Origin: Frigoribacterium sp. PvP032
GTDB lineage: Bacteria; Actinomycetota; Actinomycetes; Actinomycetales; Microbacteriaceae
Assembly (NCBI RefSeq): GCF_017833035.1
Contig: NZ_JAFIBM010000001.1
Location: 1,178,001-1,242,000, forward strand
DNA length: 64,000 nt
Direction: 5' to 3'
Shown here: piece by piece, positions 2,673 through 49,836 of the stretch
Layout: each line of letters opens with the position of its first letter
Position numbering within the stretch: position 1 is the first letter of the stretch
Program-made: the position numbers and the translations under genes
The notes under the pieces: model-generated
Databases searched by the model: none
What the model was told of the DNA's origin: nothing
Seen by the model: the letters and a program-made list of their open reading frames with translations, nothing else

Positions 2673-3620
2673 GTGGCACGAGCGACGACATCCCAGAAGA
2701 AGAAGCGCGGCGGCCGACCGGGAGGCCGACCGGGCGCCCAGCGAGCCCGCCGCGTCACGCCCGGCGACTGGATCGGCGGCGCCCGGCTGCGCACGCTGCC
2801 CCTCGGGGTCGCGCCCGTCGCGCTCGGCACCGGTGTCGCCCGGGCGAACGGCAGCTGGGACCTCCCGCTGGCCCTGCTCTGCCTCGCGATCGCCGTGTTC
2901 CTGCAGATCGGCGTCAACTACGCCAACGACTACTCCGACGGCATCCGCGGCACCGACGCGCATCGGGTCGGCCCGGCACGTCTGACGGGCTCGGGCAGCG
3001 TCCGGCCGAAGACGGTGCTGCGGGTCGCCCTCGTCTTCTTCGGCCTCGCGGCGCTCGCCGGCGTGGTCGTCGTCGTGACCACCGGCTACTGGTGGATGCT
3101 CGCGGTCGGCGCGGCTGCCGTCGTCGCCGCCTGGTACTACACGGGCGGCAAGCGCCCCTACGGCTACAACGCCCTCGGCGAGGTCTTCGTCTTCGTCTTC
3201 TTCGGCCTGGTGGCCACCGTCGGCACCGCGTTCGTGCAGCTGCACAGGTTCCCCGCCGACGCCTGGATCGCGGGCATCGCCGCCGGGCTCTTCGCCTGCG
3301 CCGTGCTGATGGTCAACAACATCCGCGACATCCCGCAAGACGCTGCGGCAGGCAAGCGCACCCTCGCGGTCGTCGTCGGCGACACCGTGGCACGGGCGCT
3401 CTACGCGCTGTTCCTGCTGCTGCCGTTCCTGCTGCTGGTCTACTTCGGCTTCCTGTACTTCAACGCGCCGTACGTCTACTTCGTGCTGATCACGGCGGTG
3501 CCCGCAGCGGTCATCGGCGTCACCGGCAAGACGCCGCGCGAGCTGATCCTCGCCCTGCAGCTGTCGTCGCTCACGGCGCTGCTGTTCGGGCTCGGCCTCG
3601 GGGCCGCCCTCTTCTTCTAG
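2673..3620 (+). CDS. menA: 1,4-dihydroxy-2-naphthoate polyprenyltransferase
   Basis: An integral membrane UbiA-family prenyltransferase (315 residues) that transfers the polyprenyl chain to DHNA in the cytoplasmic membrane, yielding demethylmenaquinone. The first aspartate-rich motif NYANDYSDGIRGTD lies near residue 84 and the second, NNIRDIPQDAAAGKR, near 214. Several hydrophobic segments follow the family pattern of 8-9 helices. The N-terminal 35 residues are very basic (KKKRGG, RPGGRPG). The GTG start is 10 bases after menE and 7 bases after a TAGGAT box. Its tail partner is probably the polyprenyl diphosphate synthase at 10916. Confidence 0.95.
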   Translation: MARATTSQKKKRGGRPGGRPGAQRARRVTPGDWIGGARLRTLPLGVAPVALGTGVARANGSWDLPLALLCLAIAVFLQIGVNYANDYSDGIRGTDAHRVGPARLTGSGSVRPKTVLRVALVFFGLAALAGVVVVVTTGYWWMLAVGAAAVVAAWYYTGGKRPYGYNALGEVFVFVFFGLVATVGTAFVQLHRFPADAWIAGIAAGLFACAVLMVNNIRDIPQDAAAGKRTLAVVVGDTVARALYALFLLLPFLLLVYFGFLYFNAPYVYFVLITAVPAAVIGVTGKTPRELILALQLSSLTALLFGLGLGAALFF

Positions 3621-7378: not shown

Positions 7379-8857
7379 CTAGGCCGAGCGGCTCCGCAGC
7401 GAGTCGCCCGCGCCTCGCGGCAGTCGCAGCCCCTCTGGCAGGCTCAGCAGGGCCAGCGCCGCCAGCACGACGAGCGCGACCTGGTAGCCGGTGGCGGCGC
7501 CTCCGACGCCCTCGGCCGTGGCGACCGTGTCGGCGACGCGCACGGTGAGGGCCGTGAGCGCGACGCCGAGGCCGACGGCGAGCTGGCCCGTGATCGACGC
7601 GATGGCGTTGGCCGGGGCGATCTGGGCGGCCGGCACGTCGGCGAACTGCAGGGTGTTGTAGGCCGTGAACCCCACCGAGCGGAAGACGCCGCTGACGAGC
7701 AGGATCCCGGCCACGAGCACGGGCGAGGTGTCCGGCCCGACGAACGCGGCGGCGACGAAGGTCGCGGCCAGCCCGACTGTGGCGACGACGATGATCGGCA
7801 CGATCCGGAACCGATGCATCAGCGGAGTCGTGAAGGGCTTGACCCCGAGGTTGCCGACGAAGACCCACATCAGCATCAGGCCGGCCTCGACGGGCGACCA
7901 GCCGAAGCCGTCCTGCAGCAGCAACGGGACGACGAACGGGACGCCGTTGACGACGGCCCTGTAGAGCGAGCCGCTGAGGTTCGTGACCCTGAACGTCGCG
8001 ACGCGGAAGGGCTCGAGATCGAGGAGGGGGTGCCTGGCCCGACGGAACCACCGGCCGGCCGCGAGCCCCAGGGCCACCGCCACGACGGCGAGGAGAGCCC
8101 CGAACAGCACCGTCGCCTGGTCGCCGAGCAGCTCGAAGGCGACCACCAGCGCGACGATCGCGCCGACGACGAGCAGCAGCCCCGGCCAGTCGAGCGGGTG
8201 CCGGTCGCCGAGCTCGGGCGACGGCACGACGCGCCAGGCCGCGACGAGCAGCAGCGCGCCGATCGGCACGTTGACGAGGAACACCCACTCCCAGCCCAGG
8301 TGCTCGGTGAGGAGGCCGCCGATCAGCGGCGCCACGACGGGCGCCGCGAGGGCAGGCCAGGTCAGGTAGGCGATGGCCTTGATCAGCTCGGACTTCTCGG
8401 TGCTGCGCAGCACGATGAGACGCCCGATCGGCACCATCATCGCGCCGGCGGCCCCCTGGACGACCCGTGCCGTCGTGAGCGCCGCCAGGTCGGGGCTGAG
8501 GGCGCACGCGAGCGACGCCAGCGTGAACAGCACCACGGCCGCGAGGAACACCCGACGTGCGCCCCACCGCTCGGCGAGCCAGGCGCCCAGCGGGATGAAC
8601 GCGGCCACCGCGACCAGGTAGCCGGTGACGGCGATCCCGAGCTGGGCCGGCTGCACGCCGAAGTCCTGGGCGACGGAGGCGGTGGCCGTCGACAGGATCG
8701 TGGCGTCGAGGTTCTCCATGAAGAAGGCCGCCGCGACCACGAGCGCCACCGGTCGCGACCAGCGCGGCGCTGCCGCCGCCTCCTCGGTGCCGCCCTGGGA
8801 GTCGGCGGCACCCGCCCCGCCCGGCCGGCCGGCCTCGGGACCGGGCGTCGACGTCAC
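7379..8857 (-). CDS. MFS drug-efflux-type transporter
   Basis: A 492-residue membrane transporter of the major facilitator superfamily. The first helix carries ENLDATILSTATASVAQDFG, close to the LDATI-VA motif of the DHA2 (14-helix) efflux group, and GRLIVLRS and RWGARRVFL correspond to loop 2-3 and motif A regions. The GTG start at 8857 overlaps the menF stop as GTGA, so translation is coupled to menF. That pairing is unusual: an exporter tied to isochorismate synthase could handle a chorismate-derived product, but a chance operon is equally possible. Substrate unknown. Confidence 0.82.
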   Translation of the reverse strand: MTSTPGPEAGRPGGAGAADSQGGTEEAAAAPRWSRPVALVVAAAFFMENLDATILSTATASVAQDFGVQPAQLGIAVTGYLVAVAAFIPLGAWLAERWGARRVFLAAVVLFTLASLACALSPDLAALTTARVVQGAAGAMMVPIGRLIVLRSTEKSELIKAIAYLTWPALAAPVVAPLIGGLLTEHLGWEWVFLVNVPIGALLLVAAWRVVPSPELGDRHPLDWPGLLLVVGAIVALVVAFELLGDQATVLFGALLAVVAVALGLAAGRWFRRARHPLLDLEPFRVATFRVTNLSGSLYRAVVNGVPFVVPLLLQDGFGWSPVEAGLMLMWVFVGNLGVKPFTTPLMHRFRIVPIIVVATVGLAATFVAAAFVGPDTSPVLVAGILLVSGVFRSVGFTAYNTLQFADVPAAQIAPANAIASITGQLAVGLGVALTALTVRVADTVATAEGVGGAATGYQVALVVLAALALLSLPEGLRLPRGAGDSLRSRSA

Positions 8858-23127: not shown

Positions 23128-23894
23128 CCGTGGTCCTCTCCGAGACCCGCGGGTCGCGAGACCCGCGCGGCCCGTTCGTCGACGTCGGGCAGCGGGCCGT
23201 CGGGCTCCGCGAGCTGATGGACGATCCTGACTGCGACCTCGGCCAGCTGAGACGCACCTACGCCGTCTTCCCGGTCGTGAACGGGCTCGTCGCCGGCTGG
23301 CGTCGTGCGTACCGCGAGCGGATCCGGCCCCTCCTGTCCGCGGACCGGCCCACGAGCCTCCTCGACCTCGGATCCGGCGGGGGCGATCTCGCCCGGTCCC
23401 TGGCCCGGTGGGCGCGCCGCGACGGCGTGCGCCTGACGGTGACGGCGGTCGACCCCGACCGCCGCGCGCACGAGTTCGCGAGCGCGCGACCGGCAGAGGG
23501 CGTCGTCCACCGCTGCGCGTCCAGCGGCGACCTCGTCGCCGCCGGCGAGCAGTTCGACGTGGTCGTGTCCAACCACGTGCTGCACCACCTCGACGACGAC
23601 GCCAGGGCCGCCGTGCTCGCCGACAGCCGGGCGCTGGCCCGGCGCCTCGCGCTGCACAGCGACATCCGGCGGTCGCCCGCGGCCTACGCCGGGTACTGGG
23701 TCGGGACGCTGCCGCTGGCGCGCACCTCCTTCGTCCGGGTGGACGGGCTGCGCTCGATCCGCCGCAGCTGGACCGACACGGAGCTGGCCCGTGAGCTGCC
23801 GATCGGCTGGACGGTCGTCCGTCGACCGCCGTTCCGCGTCTGGGCCGTGCTCGACCTCGACGAGCACACGGGCGTTCGGGGGCCGCGCTCGTGA
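23124..23894 (+). CDS. Class I SAM-dependent methyltransferase
   Basis: A 256-residue methyltransferase with motif I LLDLGSGGGDLARSLA near residue 78, an acidic motif II (TAVDPDRRAHEFA near 109), and VVVSNHVLHHLDDD near 150 in place of motif IV. It resembles the small UbiE/polyketide O- or C-methyltransferases. Its GTG start overlaps the PKS stop as GTGA and its stop overlaps the next start, so it is translationally coupled and probably methylates the PKS product. In srsABC the equivalent gene encodes an unrelated type of methyltransferase. Confidence 0.85.
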   Translation: MTVVLSETRGSRDPRGPFVDVGQRAVGLRELMDDPDCDLGQLRRTYAVFPVVNGLVAGWRRAYRERIRPLLSADRPTSLLDLGSGGGDLARSLARWARRDGVRLTVTAVDPDRRAHEFASARPAEGVVHRCASSGDLVAAGEQFDVVVSNHVLHHLDDDARAAVLADSRALARRLALHSDIRRSPAAYAGYWVGTLPLARTSFVRVDGLRSIRRSWTDTELARELPIGWTVVRRPPFRVWAVLDLDEHTGVRGPRS

Positions 23895-25078
23895 TCACGC
23901 ACGACGTCGTCGTCGTCGGCGGGGGACCGGTGGGCGTGCTCGCCGCGGCCCTGCTGGCGGCGCGCGGCCTCGACGTCGCGGTCTGGGAACGCCGCGCCGA
24001 GGCGCCGAGCCTCTCACGGGCCATCGGCGTCCACCCCCCGTCCCTCGACGTGCTGGACCGGGTGGGCGCGGCCGAGCCGCTCGTCGCGGAGGCAGTCCCC
24101 GTCCGCCGTGGCGTCGCCCGCAGCGGCGGGCGCACCCTCGGCACGGTCGACTTCGACCGGGCGCACCCCCGCTGGCCGTTCGTCGCCGCCCTGCAGCAGC
24201 ACCGCACCGAGCAGCTGCTGCGCGACAGGCTGGAGGCACTCGCCCCTGGCTCGTTGCGGCGCGGAGTCTCGCTCGACACGCTGGAGCAGGAGCCCGACCG
24301 CGTCCTGCTCCGCGGCACGGCCGACGACGGACCTGTGGAGGCGGCAGCCCGCTTCGTCCTCGCCGCCGACGGCGCCCGCAGCCCCGTGCGCGGCGCCCTG
24401 GGCATCGACGCGCCCCTGCGCCGCTACCCCGACCGCTACGTGATGTGCGACGTGGCCGACGACACCGGGCTCGGCGCCGACGCGGTCGTGCACCTCGAGC
24501 GACGCGGCGTCGTGGAGTCGTTCCCGCTGCCCGGCGGGGTGCGCCGCTTCGTGGTGCTGCTCGACGACGACGCCGCACGCACGTCCGACGGGACCCGGCC
24601 GACCGAGGCCGTGCCCGACCCCGAGATGATCGCGAGGCTCGTCGCGGAGCGGACCGGGATCGAGGTCGATCCCGGCACGGCGACCATGACGAGCGCGTTC
24701 GGCGTGCAGCGACGGCTGGCCCGCCGCACGGTCGCCGGGCGGGTCGTCCTGATCGGCGACGCCGCCCACGAGATCAGCCCGATCGGCGGCCAGGGGATGA
24801 ACCTCGGCTGGCTCGACGCCGACGCCGTGGCACCCGTCATCGCGAGGGCACTGCGCTCTGCCGGAGGGCGGCGCCTCGACCCGACCGTGTTCCGGGCCTA
24901 CGAGGAGGCGCGTCGCCGGTCGGTCGGCCGCTCGGCTCGGCAGGCGGAGATCAACATGGCCCTCGGCCGCCCCGTCGGGCCCGCGGTCGGCGTCGCACGA
25001 CAGGTCGGCCTGTCGGCGGCGCTGCACCTGCCGACCCGCCGCCTCCTCGCCTCGCTCTACTCGATGCGCTTCGTCTGA
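23891..25078 (+). CDS. FAD-dependent aromatic monooxygenase
   Basis: A 395-residue class A flavoprotein monooxygenase (PHBH fold). The Rossmann FAD motif VVVGGGPVGVLAAALLAARG is at residues 6-25, the DG motif FVLAADGARSPVRGALG near 156 and the second FAD motif VVLIGDAAHEISPIGGQGMNLG near 284. It should hydroxylate a phenolic ring using NAD(P)H and O2. The GTG start overlaps the methyltransferase stop by 4 bases, giving a PKS, methyltransferase, hydroxylase operon that could convert an alkylresorcinol to a methoxylated hydroquinone or quinone, as SrsC does. No partner reductase is needed for this class. Confidence 0.87.
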   Translation: MITHDVVVVGGGPVGVLAAALLAARGLDVAVWERRAEAPSLSRAIGVHPPSLDVLDRVGAAEPLVAEAVPVRRGVARSGGRTLGTVDFDRAHPRWPFVAALQQHRTEQLLRDRLEALAPGSLRRGVSLDTLEQEPDRVLLRGTADDGPVEAAARFVLAADGARSPVRGALGIDAPLRRYPDRYVMCDVADDTGLGADAVVHLERRGVVESFPLPGGVRRFVVLLDDDAARTSDGTRPTEAVPDPEMIARLVAERTGIEVDPGTATMTSAFGVQRRLARRTVAGRVVLIGDAAHEISPIGGQGMNLGWLDADAVAPVIARALRSAGGRRLDPTVFRAYEEARRRSVGRSARQAEINMALGRPVGPAVGVARQVGLSAALHLPTRRLLASLYSMRFV

Positions 25079-25150: not shown

Positions 25151-25241
25151 TTCAGGACGCTGAGTCCTGAGTTGGCGTTGTGCAGGACTCTCTGTCCTGA
25201 ATCGTGCACAGTTCAGGAGGCGGCAGCCGAAACTCCTGAAT
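25151..25241 (+). repeat. Multi-hairpin TCAGGA/TCCTGA element, copy A
   Basis: Three successive inverted repeats: TTCAGGAC-GTCCTGAG, CAGGAC-GTCCTGAA, and TTCAGGAG-CTCCTGAA. Copy B at 25333 differs at only a few positions. A diverged member is at 49743. Confidence 0.9.
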
Positions 25242-25332
25242 ACGGCCCGAATCGATCGGGCGGCGGCCGCGGCGAGTTCTTGAACGAGGTGGACGGGGTC
25301 CGGCATGCGCAGCCGGCCAGCTGCTGGCCTCA

Positions 25333-25424
25333 TTCAGGACGCTGAGTCCTGAGTTGGCGTTGTGCAGGACTCTGCGTCCTGAATCGTGCACACTTCAGGA
25401 GGCGGCAGCCGAGAACTCCTGAAT
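25333..25424 (+). repeat. Multi-hairpin TCAGGA/TCCTGA element, copy B
   Basis: Near-identical to copy A including the TCCTGAATCGTGCACA linker. The few differences lie mainly in loops (TCTCT versus TCTGC) and preserve the stems. Confidence 0.9.
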
Positions 25425-25479: not shown

Positions 25480-26343
25480 TCAGGCGACGAGCGCCGTGCC
25501 CGCGAGGGCCAGCGACACGACGAGCACGAGAGCGGCGGCGATGACGAGCCGGAACAGGCCCCTGGTCGCCCCGCCCCGGCGGACCAGCCTCGCCCCGACC
25601 GCGGACAGCACCAGCGCGGTGGCCGCCCCGACGAGGCCTGCGCCGGTCCGGACAGGAGTCAGGGACTCGTCGAGGAGGAGCCCCGCCGCCGTCACGACCG
25701 CAGCCGTCCCCAGGGCGGCGAAGGCCACGAGCCCGGCGCGCAGGCGTCCGAGCCGGTGCGGGAGCCCGACGACGCCCGTCCGGGCATCGTCGTCGAGGTC
25801 GGGCAGGACGTTGGTGAAGTGGATCGCGACGCCGAAGGCCGCTCCGACGATCAGGGCCCAGGCGGCGGGCTCGGCCGGGGGCGCAGCGGCGAGGGTGACC
25901 ACGGCGGGCAGGGCCCCGAAGCCGACGACGAACGGCACGACCGACCATGCCGTGCGCTTGAGCCCGAGGTTGTAGGCCCAGCCGGAGACGAGGAAGACGA
26001 GGTGGGCGACGCCGGCGGCCCAGCCGAGCAAGAAGGTCAGGCCGACCGCGAGGACGGTGACGACCGTGACGGCGACCATGGCCGCCCTGGTCGAGACGAG
26101 GCCCAGGGCGAGCGGCTTGTCGAGGCGCCCGACCTGGCGGTCGCGCGCGGCGTCGACGAGGTCGTTCGAGAGCCCGATCGAGAGCTGCCCGGCCAGCACG
26201 GCCGCTCCGAGCACCAGGGTGCGTCCCGCGTCGAGGCCGACTGCCGTCGCGAGGACGACCGAGAGCAGCGTGACGGCGACGGTCGGGCCGGGGTGCGTGG
26301 AGCGTGCCAGGGCCGCGACGGTCGAGACGGGTGAGGTCGTCAC
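25480..26343 (-). CDS. UbiA family prenyltransferase
   Basis: A 287-residue integral membrane prenyltransferase with roughly eight hydrophobic segments. The first aspartate motif NDLVDAARDRQVGR is near residue 60 and the second, NVLPDLDDDARTG, near 178. It is distinct from MenA (2673) and shares little beyond the motifs. It lies convergent to the type III PKS operon across the repeat arrays, which suggests, but does not prove, prenylation of that operon's aromatic product; haem, chlorophyll-like or phospholipid roles of UbiA enzymes are alternatives. The GTG at 26343 gives MTTSPVSTVAAL; no ribosome site is evident. Confidence 0.85.
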   Translation of the reverse strand: MTTSPVSTVAALARSTHPGPTVAVTLLSVVLATAVGLDAGRTLVLGAAVLAGQLSIGLSNDLVDAARDRQVGRLDKPLALGLVSTRAAMVAVTVVTVLAVGLTFLLGWAAGVAHLVFLVSGWAYNLGLKRTAWSVVPFVVGFGALPAVVTLAAAPPAEPAAWALIVGAAFGVAIHFTNVLPDLDDDARTGVVGLPHRLGRLRAGLVAFAALGTAAVVTAAGLLLDESLTPVRTGAGLVGAATALVLSAVGARLVRRGGATRGLFRLVIAAALVLVVSLALAGTALVA

Positions 26344-49723: not shown

Positions 49724-49742
49724 CCCTGCCCTGCCCCTCCTC

Positions 49743-49836
49743 ATTCAGGAACATCAGTCCTGATCCGCGCGGCGGGGGGAGGCGGAGTCCTGATCGGTGC
49801 ACCGTTCAGGATCAAGCAAGCCTGCGTTCCTGAATG
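49743..49836 (+). repeat. Multi-hairpin TCAGGA/TCCTGA element, diverged copy C
   Basis: Contains ATTCAGGA-TCCTGA, then TCCTGATCGGTGCACCGTTCAGGA (a near-palindrome matching TCCTGAATCGTGCACA-TTCAGGA of copies A and B), then TTCCTGAAT. It occupies the gap between the sugar cluster and the TolB-like gene. Confidence 0.8.

What the first reader, a model, noticed from the sequence alone, without database searches (positions are those of the whole stretch)
25151..25424. Two near-identical multi-hairpin intergenic elements, a possible new repeat family
Two elements of 91 and 92 bases, 182 bases apart, each contain three consecutive inverted repeats made of TCAGGA and TCCTGA arms. Differences between copies lie mainly in loops, so stems appear maintained. 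They sit exactly between the type III PKS operon and the convergent UbiA gene. They encode no protein and do not look like an insertion sequence, CRISPR or a simple terminator.
Basis: seen in the sequence. Interest (0 to 1): 0.75.

Follow-up and report, generated by a model that had tools for sequence, protein, structure and literature searches.

The report
Dispersed six-half-site intergenic DNA element
The two hairpin-like elements belong to a family of about 70 ~91-bp DNA elements scattered between genes of a few related Frigoribacterium species; selection preserves their short recognition sequences and their spacing but not the DNA in between, and they thin out from the replication origin towards the terminus, which suggests they are docking sites for an unidentified DNA-binding protein.

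Summary
In detail: two near-identical 91/92-bp elements lie 182 bp apart between an FAD-monooxygenase gene (end of a type III PKS operon) and a convergent UbiA gene. They belong to a real dispersed family: 70 copies (57 independent loci) in this genome, a third in the window (49735-49835), hundreds of matches in three other Frigoribacterium species, and none in 12 further Frigoribacterium species.

Architecture is fixed: TCAGGA-N7-TCCTGA / N11 / (T/G)CAGGA-N7-TCCTGA / N3-GTGCAC-N3 / TCAGGA-N16-TCCTGA. At orthologous loci, half-sites and GTGCAC change at 2.5-3% of positions, loops and spacers at 23-29%. Indels are about 3-fold rarer than in flanks.

The "maintained stems" reading needs correcting. 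Compensatory changes show no excess over shuffles, and one half-site stays invariant where its partner is lost. So duplex sequence and spacing are selected, not RNA folding.

Copies avoid promoter regions, favour convergent gene ends and thin out from dnaA to the terminus (21/19/9/5/3 per fifth). No Y1/RAYT transposase is found; GTAG/CGTC tags, a T-tract and Rfam matches are absent.

Best explanation: scattered sites for an unidentified DNA-binding protein acting on chromosome organisation or division, Noc/SlmA-like in logic (inferred). A second fixed-geometry family (~46 copies) turned up in the same genome.

The parts
25151..25241 (+). element copy 1 (91 bp)
   Evidence: G000:C1:1203142-1203241
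25152..25170 (+). copy 1, dyad 1: TCAGGA-N7-TCCTGA
25182..25200 (+). copy 1, dyad 2: GCAGGA-N7-TCCTGA
25204..25209 (.). copy 1, GTGCAC palindrome; centre of TCCTGA-N3-GTGCAC-N3-TCAGGA
25213..25239 (+). copy 1, dyad 3: TCAGGA-N15-TCCTGA (family norm N16)
25333..25424 (+). element copy 2 (92 bp), preceded by part of the CTCTCCTCAT 5' motif (CCTCAT)
   Evidence: G000:C1:1203324-1203424
25334..25352 (+). copy 2, dyad 1
25364..25382 (+). copy 2, dyad 2
25386..25391 (.). copy 2, GTGCAC
25395..25422 (+). copy 2, dyad 3: TCAGGA-N16-TCCTGA
49735..49835 (+). third copy in the window, diverged loops, with 5' CCCTCCTCAT motif; dyads at 49745-49763 and 49806-49833, GTGCAC at 49797-49802
23891..25078 (+). 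FAD-binding monooxygenase, last gene of the type III PKS operon, upstream of copy 1 (context)
25480..26343 (-). UbiA prenyltransferase, convergent (context)

Best explanation
The element is a compound duplex-DNA recognition site: six alternating TCAGGA/TCCTGA half-sites (one, the left half of dyad 2, often degenerate) and a central GTGCAC palindrome, at fixed spacing over about 91 bp. The best-conserved core is the symmetric TCCTGA-N3-GTGCAC-N3-TCAGGA. SHOWN: a ~70-copy family, fixed geometry, strong purifying selection on half-sites and spacing at fixed orthologous loci, intergenic placement avoiding promoter-only gaps, and an origin-to-terminus gradient. INFERRED: an unidentified sequence-specific protein binds several half-sites cooperatively at each copy, and the population of sites scattered round the origin-proximal chromosome is what the cell uses (chromosome organisation, segregation or timing of division), working like the Noc or SlmA site sets. 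The 91-bp unit also still multiplies now and then by an unknown route (local duplications, and a lineage-specific gain in this window).
For: 70 copies at 57-59 loci; 61 copies align over 101 columns without a gap. Orthologous loci: arms and GTGCAC 2.5-3% substituted versus loops and spacers 23-29% and 40-nt flanks 25%. In the subset not selected on dyad 1, its arms/loop ratio is 0.10 (95% CI 0.04-0.20; Fisher p=6e-10). Indels 0.0086/bp in the element versus 0.029/bp in flanks. No excess of compensatory changes; the TCCTGA of dyad 2 is as conserved without its partner (8/216 mismatches) as with it (5/186). Both orientations relative to genes occur (24 sense, 12 antisense). Convergent gaps enriched (20/57, p=0.007), divergent depleted (4/57, p=1e-5). 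Mean direction 29 kb from dnaA, V-test p=3.6e-6 (95% CI -198 to +267 kb). Noc has about 70 palindromic sites, underrepresented at Ter (PMC4726725). Upstream genes share no function.
Against: No candidate binder was identified, and a clade-specific gene could not be searched for with these tools. A control palindrome family in the same genome is also thin in the terminus-most fifth, and the difference from it is only p=0.026. Copies are largely inherited, so loci are not fully independent. 12 of 16 Frigoribacterium species live without the family. Sense orientation just after stop codons is commoner than antisense (24:12, p=0.065), which a purely DNA-level role would not need.
Confidence: 0.42

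Rival explanations
1. A REP/MITE-like non-autonomous mobile repeat: the conserved arms are ends and sites for a recombinase or transposase acting in trans, and the family is mostly selfish.
For: Discrete 91-bp unit; the two window copies are 88% identical in variable positions and absent from the 36-bp gap of two sister species; other young local pairs or triples at 145-204 bp spacing; ATTCAGGA...TCCTGAAT terminal inverted repeats; patchy species distribution.
Against: Selfish copies should decay at fixed loci, yet orthologous copies keep arms at about 10-fold lower substitution than loops; hardly any decayed or partial copies in the genome scan; no Y1 transposase in any of 16 genomes; no clean target-site duplication or split autonomous copy seen.
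Confidence: 0.25
2. An RNA-level 3'-end element: transcribed hairpins that terminate transcription, stabilise mRNA 3' ends or bind an RNA protein.
For: Lies 12-69 nt after a stop codon in 23 of 24 sense tandem copies; convergent gaps enriched; folds better than shuffles (z -3.6 and -2.6).
Against: No excess of compensatory pairs in 61 copies; a half-site kept when its pairing partner is lost; no T-tract after any of 70 copies on either side; canonical-looking hairpins precede some copies (sequence at 642104 and 832964); 12 of 36 tandem copies are antisense.
Confidence: 0.2
3. A recombinase site set, resembling a serine-resolvase res site (three subsites of inverted half-sites with unequal spacing).
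For: Three dyads with 19, 19 and 28 bp spans built from one half-site at fixed spacing; local duplications.
Against: Centres of the dyads vary freely with no conserved crossover bases; 70 directly and inversely oriented copies would delete or invert the chromosome if active; resemblance recalled from memory, not tested against resolvase site models.
Confidence: 0.07
4. A DNA-uptake or similar short-word signal that happens to be arranged in dyads.
For: TTCAGGA dyads recur in other Microbacteriaceae genera, each with its own layout.
Against: Single TTCAGGA words are not overrepresented outside the elements (10 seen, 12.6 expected in 389 kb).
Confidence: 0.03

Closest known systems
Noc binding sites (B. 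subtilis) and SlmA binding sites (E. coli)
   Same: Tens of dispersed palindromic protein sites (about 70 for Noc) underrepresented in the terminus region (PMC4726725); copy number and distribution here are similar.
   Different: Those are single short palindromes (14 bp for Noc); here a 91-bp array of six half-sites plus GTGCAC. No ParB- or TetR-type binder was shown, and no division role tested.
REP / BIME elements with RAYT transposases (GTAG and CGTC families)
   Same: Dispersed, intergenic, palindromic, often downstream of genes; tens to hundreds of copies (PMC3733652).
   Different: No GTAG or CGTC tag, no Y1/RAYT gene in the genus, invariant arm sequence rather than covarying stems, three dyads in one fixed unit.
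Bacterial MITEs (ERIC/RUP/Correia type)
   Same: Short, non-coding, terminal inverted repeats, multi-copy, intergenic (general knowledge; review PMC10969869 listed).
   Different: Internal half-sites and their spacing are under purifying selection at fixed loci; no parent transposon or target duplication seen.
Tn3-family res sites
   Same: Three subsites of inverted half-sites with unequal spacing (from memory).
   Different: 70 chromosomal copies, no conserved crossover centre; no association with a resolvase gene was looked for systematically.

Membership tests
REP/BIME (RAYT-mobilised) | terminal GTAG (or CGTC) tetranucleotide next to the palindrome | tested here: not met
   61-copy alignment: conserved flank is CTCTCCTCAT / AT, no GTAG or CGTC column; definition from PMC3733652
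REP/BIME (RAYT-mobilised) | REP-associated Y1 tyrosine transposase in the genome | tested here: not met
   Y1_Tnp PF01797: 0 of 16 genus genomes, controls positive in 5 of 14 named genomes
REP/BIME (RAYT-mobilised) | dispersed, extragenic, palindromic | tested here: met
   57 of 57 independent loci intergenic (one clustered copy called inside a gene)
MITE | terminal inverted repeats | tested here: met
   ATTCAGGA...TCCTGAAT
MITE | target-site duplication and a parent autonomous element | tested here: inconclusive
   No clean empty site with duplication among the loci compared; no half-element flanking a gene seen in the genome scan
Intrinsic terminator | hairpin followed by a T-tract | tested here: not met
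   0 of 70 copies with 5 or more T in the 10 nt after the element, either side
Structured RNA family | compensatory base-pair changes | tested here: not met
   14 cells with changes on both sides, fewer than shuffles (20.7), 13 of them in a speculative inner helix; arms invariant; no Rfam hit at the locus
Noc/SlmA-type chromosome site set | sites depleted near the terminus | tested here: met
   21/19/9/5/3 loci per fifth from dnaA, V-test p=3.6e-6; control family weaker
Noc/SlmA-type chromosome site set | bound by a nucleoid-occlusion protein that inhibits FtsZ ring assembly | not testable with these tools
   needs binding and cell-biology experiments
DNA uptake sequence | short word overrepresented as single copies across the genome | tested here: not met
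   TTCAGGA 10 observed, 12.6 expected outside elements

The most novel reading that the evidence does not exclude
A new chromosome-organising or division-timing system in Actinobacteria: a clade-specific DNA-binding protein reads about 70 compound sites (six half-sites plus GTGCAC) spread in a gradient from the origin, a nucleoid-occlusion-like or macrodomain-like system where none of this site type is known, with a second, independent fixed-geometry site family (TCGAGGGCGGGT x4, 20-bp period) in the same species.
Probability: 0.25. Interest if true: 0.85.

Novelty: new variant of a known kind. Interest (0 to 1): 0.62.

Why it matters
Most dispersed bacterial palindromes are read either as RAYT-moved REPs or as RNA hairpins. 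This family fits neither: selection at fixed loci acts on duplex sequence and spacing, there is no Y1 transposase, and the copies thin out from the origin. It gives a concrete bait (TCCTGA-N3-GTGCAC-N3-TCAGGA and the whole 91 bp) for finding the protein, in organisms where four species carry the system and a dozen close relatives do not, so presence/absence genetics can be done. If the protein turns out to act on the nucleoid or the division site, it would bear on how Actinobacteria, which lack known Noc and SlmA systems as far as I know, couple division to the chromosome.

Tried and rejected
Rfam search at the locus: only a chance miRNA hit far below threshold. RAYT/Y1 transposase: none in the genus. 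Structural RNA: no covariation excess. Uptake sequence: no excess of single words. Phage origin: no match to the core palindrome in viral contigs. Common function of the genes upstream: none, 61 proteins scanned, top family shared by 3. Orientation against replication direction: 42 co-directed versus 28, not convincing. Empty-site comparison to define a target duplication: sister intergenic regions differ too much for clean boundaries. The covariance model's middle helix was entered one column out of register; it still recovers the copies, and no pairing claim rests on it (searches were done separately). Literature: no paper combining Frigoribacterium with such repeats, and none for the arm words in Microbacteriaceae.

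Full report
OBSERVATION. They lie between an FAD-binding monooxygenase gene ending at 25078 (last gene after a type III PKS and a methyltransferase) and the convergent UbiA gene at 25480-26343. Six TCAGGA-gap-TCCTGA matches occur in the window against 0.05 expected; two of these mark a third copy at 49735-49835.

FAMILY. A DNA search of the window's genome (3.33 Mb, one contig) gave 26 copies, the dyad pattern 114 matches against 8 for the reversed control, and a covariance model from 61 copies 70 non-overlapping copies at about 57-59 loci. The genus is inferred to be Frigoribacterium: an exact pattern for the right half of the element, scanned over 84,980 species genomes, hit only three Frigoribacterium genomes, 56 stretches. 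In the genus set, the window's genome and three others carry the family (61-137 model matches each, both strands counted) and 12 carry none. By DNA identity at the PKS/UbiA locus the four carriers are each other's closest relatives (80-89% versus about 70-75%), so the family probably arose or expanded in one clade.

ANATOMY. 61 copies align over 101 columns without a gap: CTCTCCTCAT | TCAGGA-N7-TCCTGA | N11 | (T/G/C)CAGGA or GGGGGA-N7-TCCTGA | N3-GTGCAC-N3 | TCAGGA-N16-TCCTGA | AT. Loops differ almost freely (median 42% identity between copies in 48 variable positions) but keep their length. The best-conserved core is itself a palindrome, TCCTGA-N3-GTGCAC-N3-TCAGGA.

SELECTION. Many copies sit at the same place in several species. 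In 34 orthologous pairs (28 loci), arms and GTGCAC differ at 2.5-3% of positions (the often degenerate left arm of dyad 2 at 9%), CTCTCCTCAT at 9%, loops and spacers at 23-29%, the 12-base linker at 16%, adjacent flanks at 25%. Some loci were found through parts of the element, so I repeated this on loci selected only on the right half: dyad 1 arms 7/251, loop 1 33/147, ratio 0.10 with 95% CI 0.04-0.20. Indels per base are 0.0086 in the element and 0.029 in flanks although substitutions are not rarer. Both sequence and spacing are therefore constrained at fixed loci. The two window copies are young: sister species G001 and G011 have only about 36 bp between the two genes.

SEQUENCE, NOT FOLD. 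The arms show no excess of compensatory changes over shuffles. In dyad 2 the right half-site is equally conserved whether the left one is intact (5/186 mismatches) or degenerate (8/216). None of 70 copies has a T-tract, and a third of tandem copies are antisense. RNA folding energy is better than shuffles, as expected from any dyad. In another Microbacteriaceae genus the same TTCAGGA word also occurs in direct repeats about 22 bp apart, a layout that forms no hairpin.

PLACEMENT. With a home-made codon-model gene caller, all 57 independent loci are intergenic; convergent gaps are enriched (20/57, p=0.007) and divergent gaps depleted (4/57, p=1e-5). Sense copies start 12-69 nt after a stop codon in 23 of 24 cases. 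dnaA lies at 218.7 kb. Loci per fifth of the half-chromosome from dnaA are 21, 19, 9, 5, 3; the mean direction is 29 kb from dnaA (95% CI -198 to +267 kb), V-test p=3.6e-6. A control palindrome family has 11, 9, 9, 12, 2 (V-test p=0.12; difference p=0.026), so part of the terminus depletion may be general. The terminus position is assumed opposite dnaA. The genes upstream share no function.

WHAT IT IS NOT. Y1/RAYT transposase is absent from all 16 genus genomes, and GTAG/CGTC tags, which define the REP superfamilies (PMC3733652), are absent. No Rfam family matches, no viral contig carries the core, and single TTCAGGA words are not in excess.

MECHANISM. Shown: a multi-copy, fixed-geometry element under selection for half-site sequence and spacing, intergenic, in a gradient from the origin. 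Inferred: a sequence-specific protein binds several half-sites at once, and the site population serves a chromosome-scale role. The nearest working analogy is the site set of Noc (about 70 palindromic sites) or SlmA (24-52), both underrepresented at the terminus (PMC4726725); it is not a claim of membership. How new copies arise is unknown; local duplications exist, some including flanks (833168/833315), while the window pair shares no obvious flank.

WIDER. Other Microbacteriaceae genera have an excess of TTCAGGA dyads with different layouts, mostly between convergent genes in the genus studied most. A second fixed-geometry family, TCGAGGGCGGGT-N8-TCGAGGGCGGGT-N8-ACCCGCCCTCGA-N8-ACCCGCCCTCGA, exists in the same species: about 46 palindrome centres in this genome, 21 distinct full copies in DNA in hand, all with 8-base spacers, four of them within 400 bp of a family-1 copy (0.67 expected, p=0.004).

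LIMITS.

Noticed in passing
G000:C1, e.g. 8739-8762, 207519-207542, 2467790-2467813; full copies in L191:4735-4810, L194:282-357, L216:3567-3642 (approx.): A second dispersed family: four half-sites TCGAGGGCGGGT (two forward, two reverse) with exactly 8-base variable spacers (20-bp period), 46 palindrome centres in the genome against 5 in the reversed control; also in sister carriers.
   Followed up: partly
L190:3155-3200 (G000:C1 about 294754-294799): A strong palindrome AGGAGGCGCGGTGCAGG...CCTGCACCGCGCCTCCT with relatives across the whole genus, including species without the TCAGGA element; possibly a terminator or third repeat family.
   Followed up: no
L268, L269, L300-L314 (genomes G117, G276), L315-L318 (G255), L319 (G348): Other Microbacteriaceae genera have their own excess of TTCAGGA...TCCTGAA dyads (up to 15 versus 0-1 typical). 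In G117/G276 the outer stem appears to covary (CTTTCACAA/CTTTCAGAA/GTTCAGTA) around the invariant TTCAGGA, mostly between convergent genes 9-50 bp from stop codons.
   Followed up: partly
L269 about 3260-3400 (G117:C1:2236260-2236400): TTTCMCAATTCAGGACCTGTC half-sites in direct repeats with a period of about 22 bp.
   Followed up: no
G001:C6, C8, C9, C10, C11; G011:C6; G012:C4: Several draft contigs of carrier genomes end within 20-550 bp of an element copy, as if assemblies or sequencing break near these elements.
   Followed up: no
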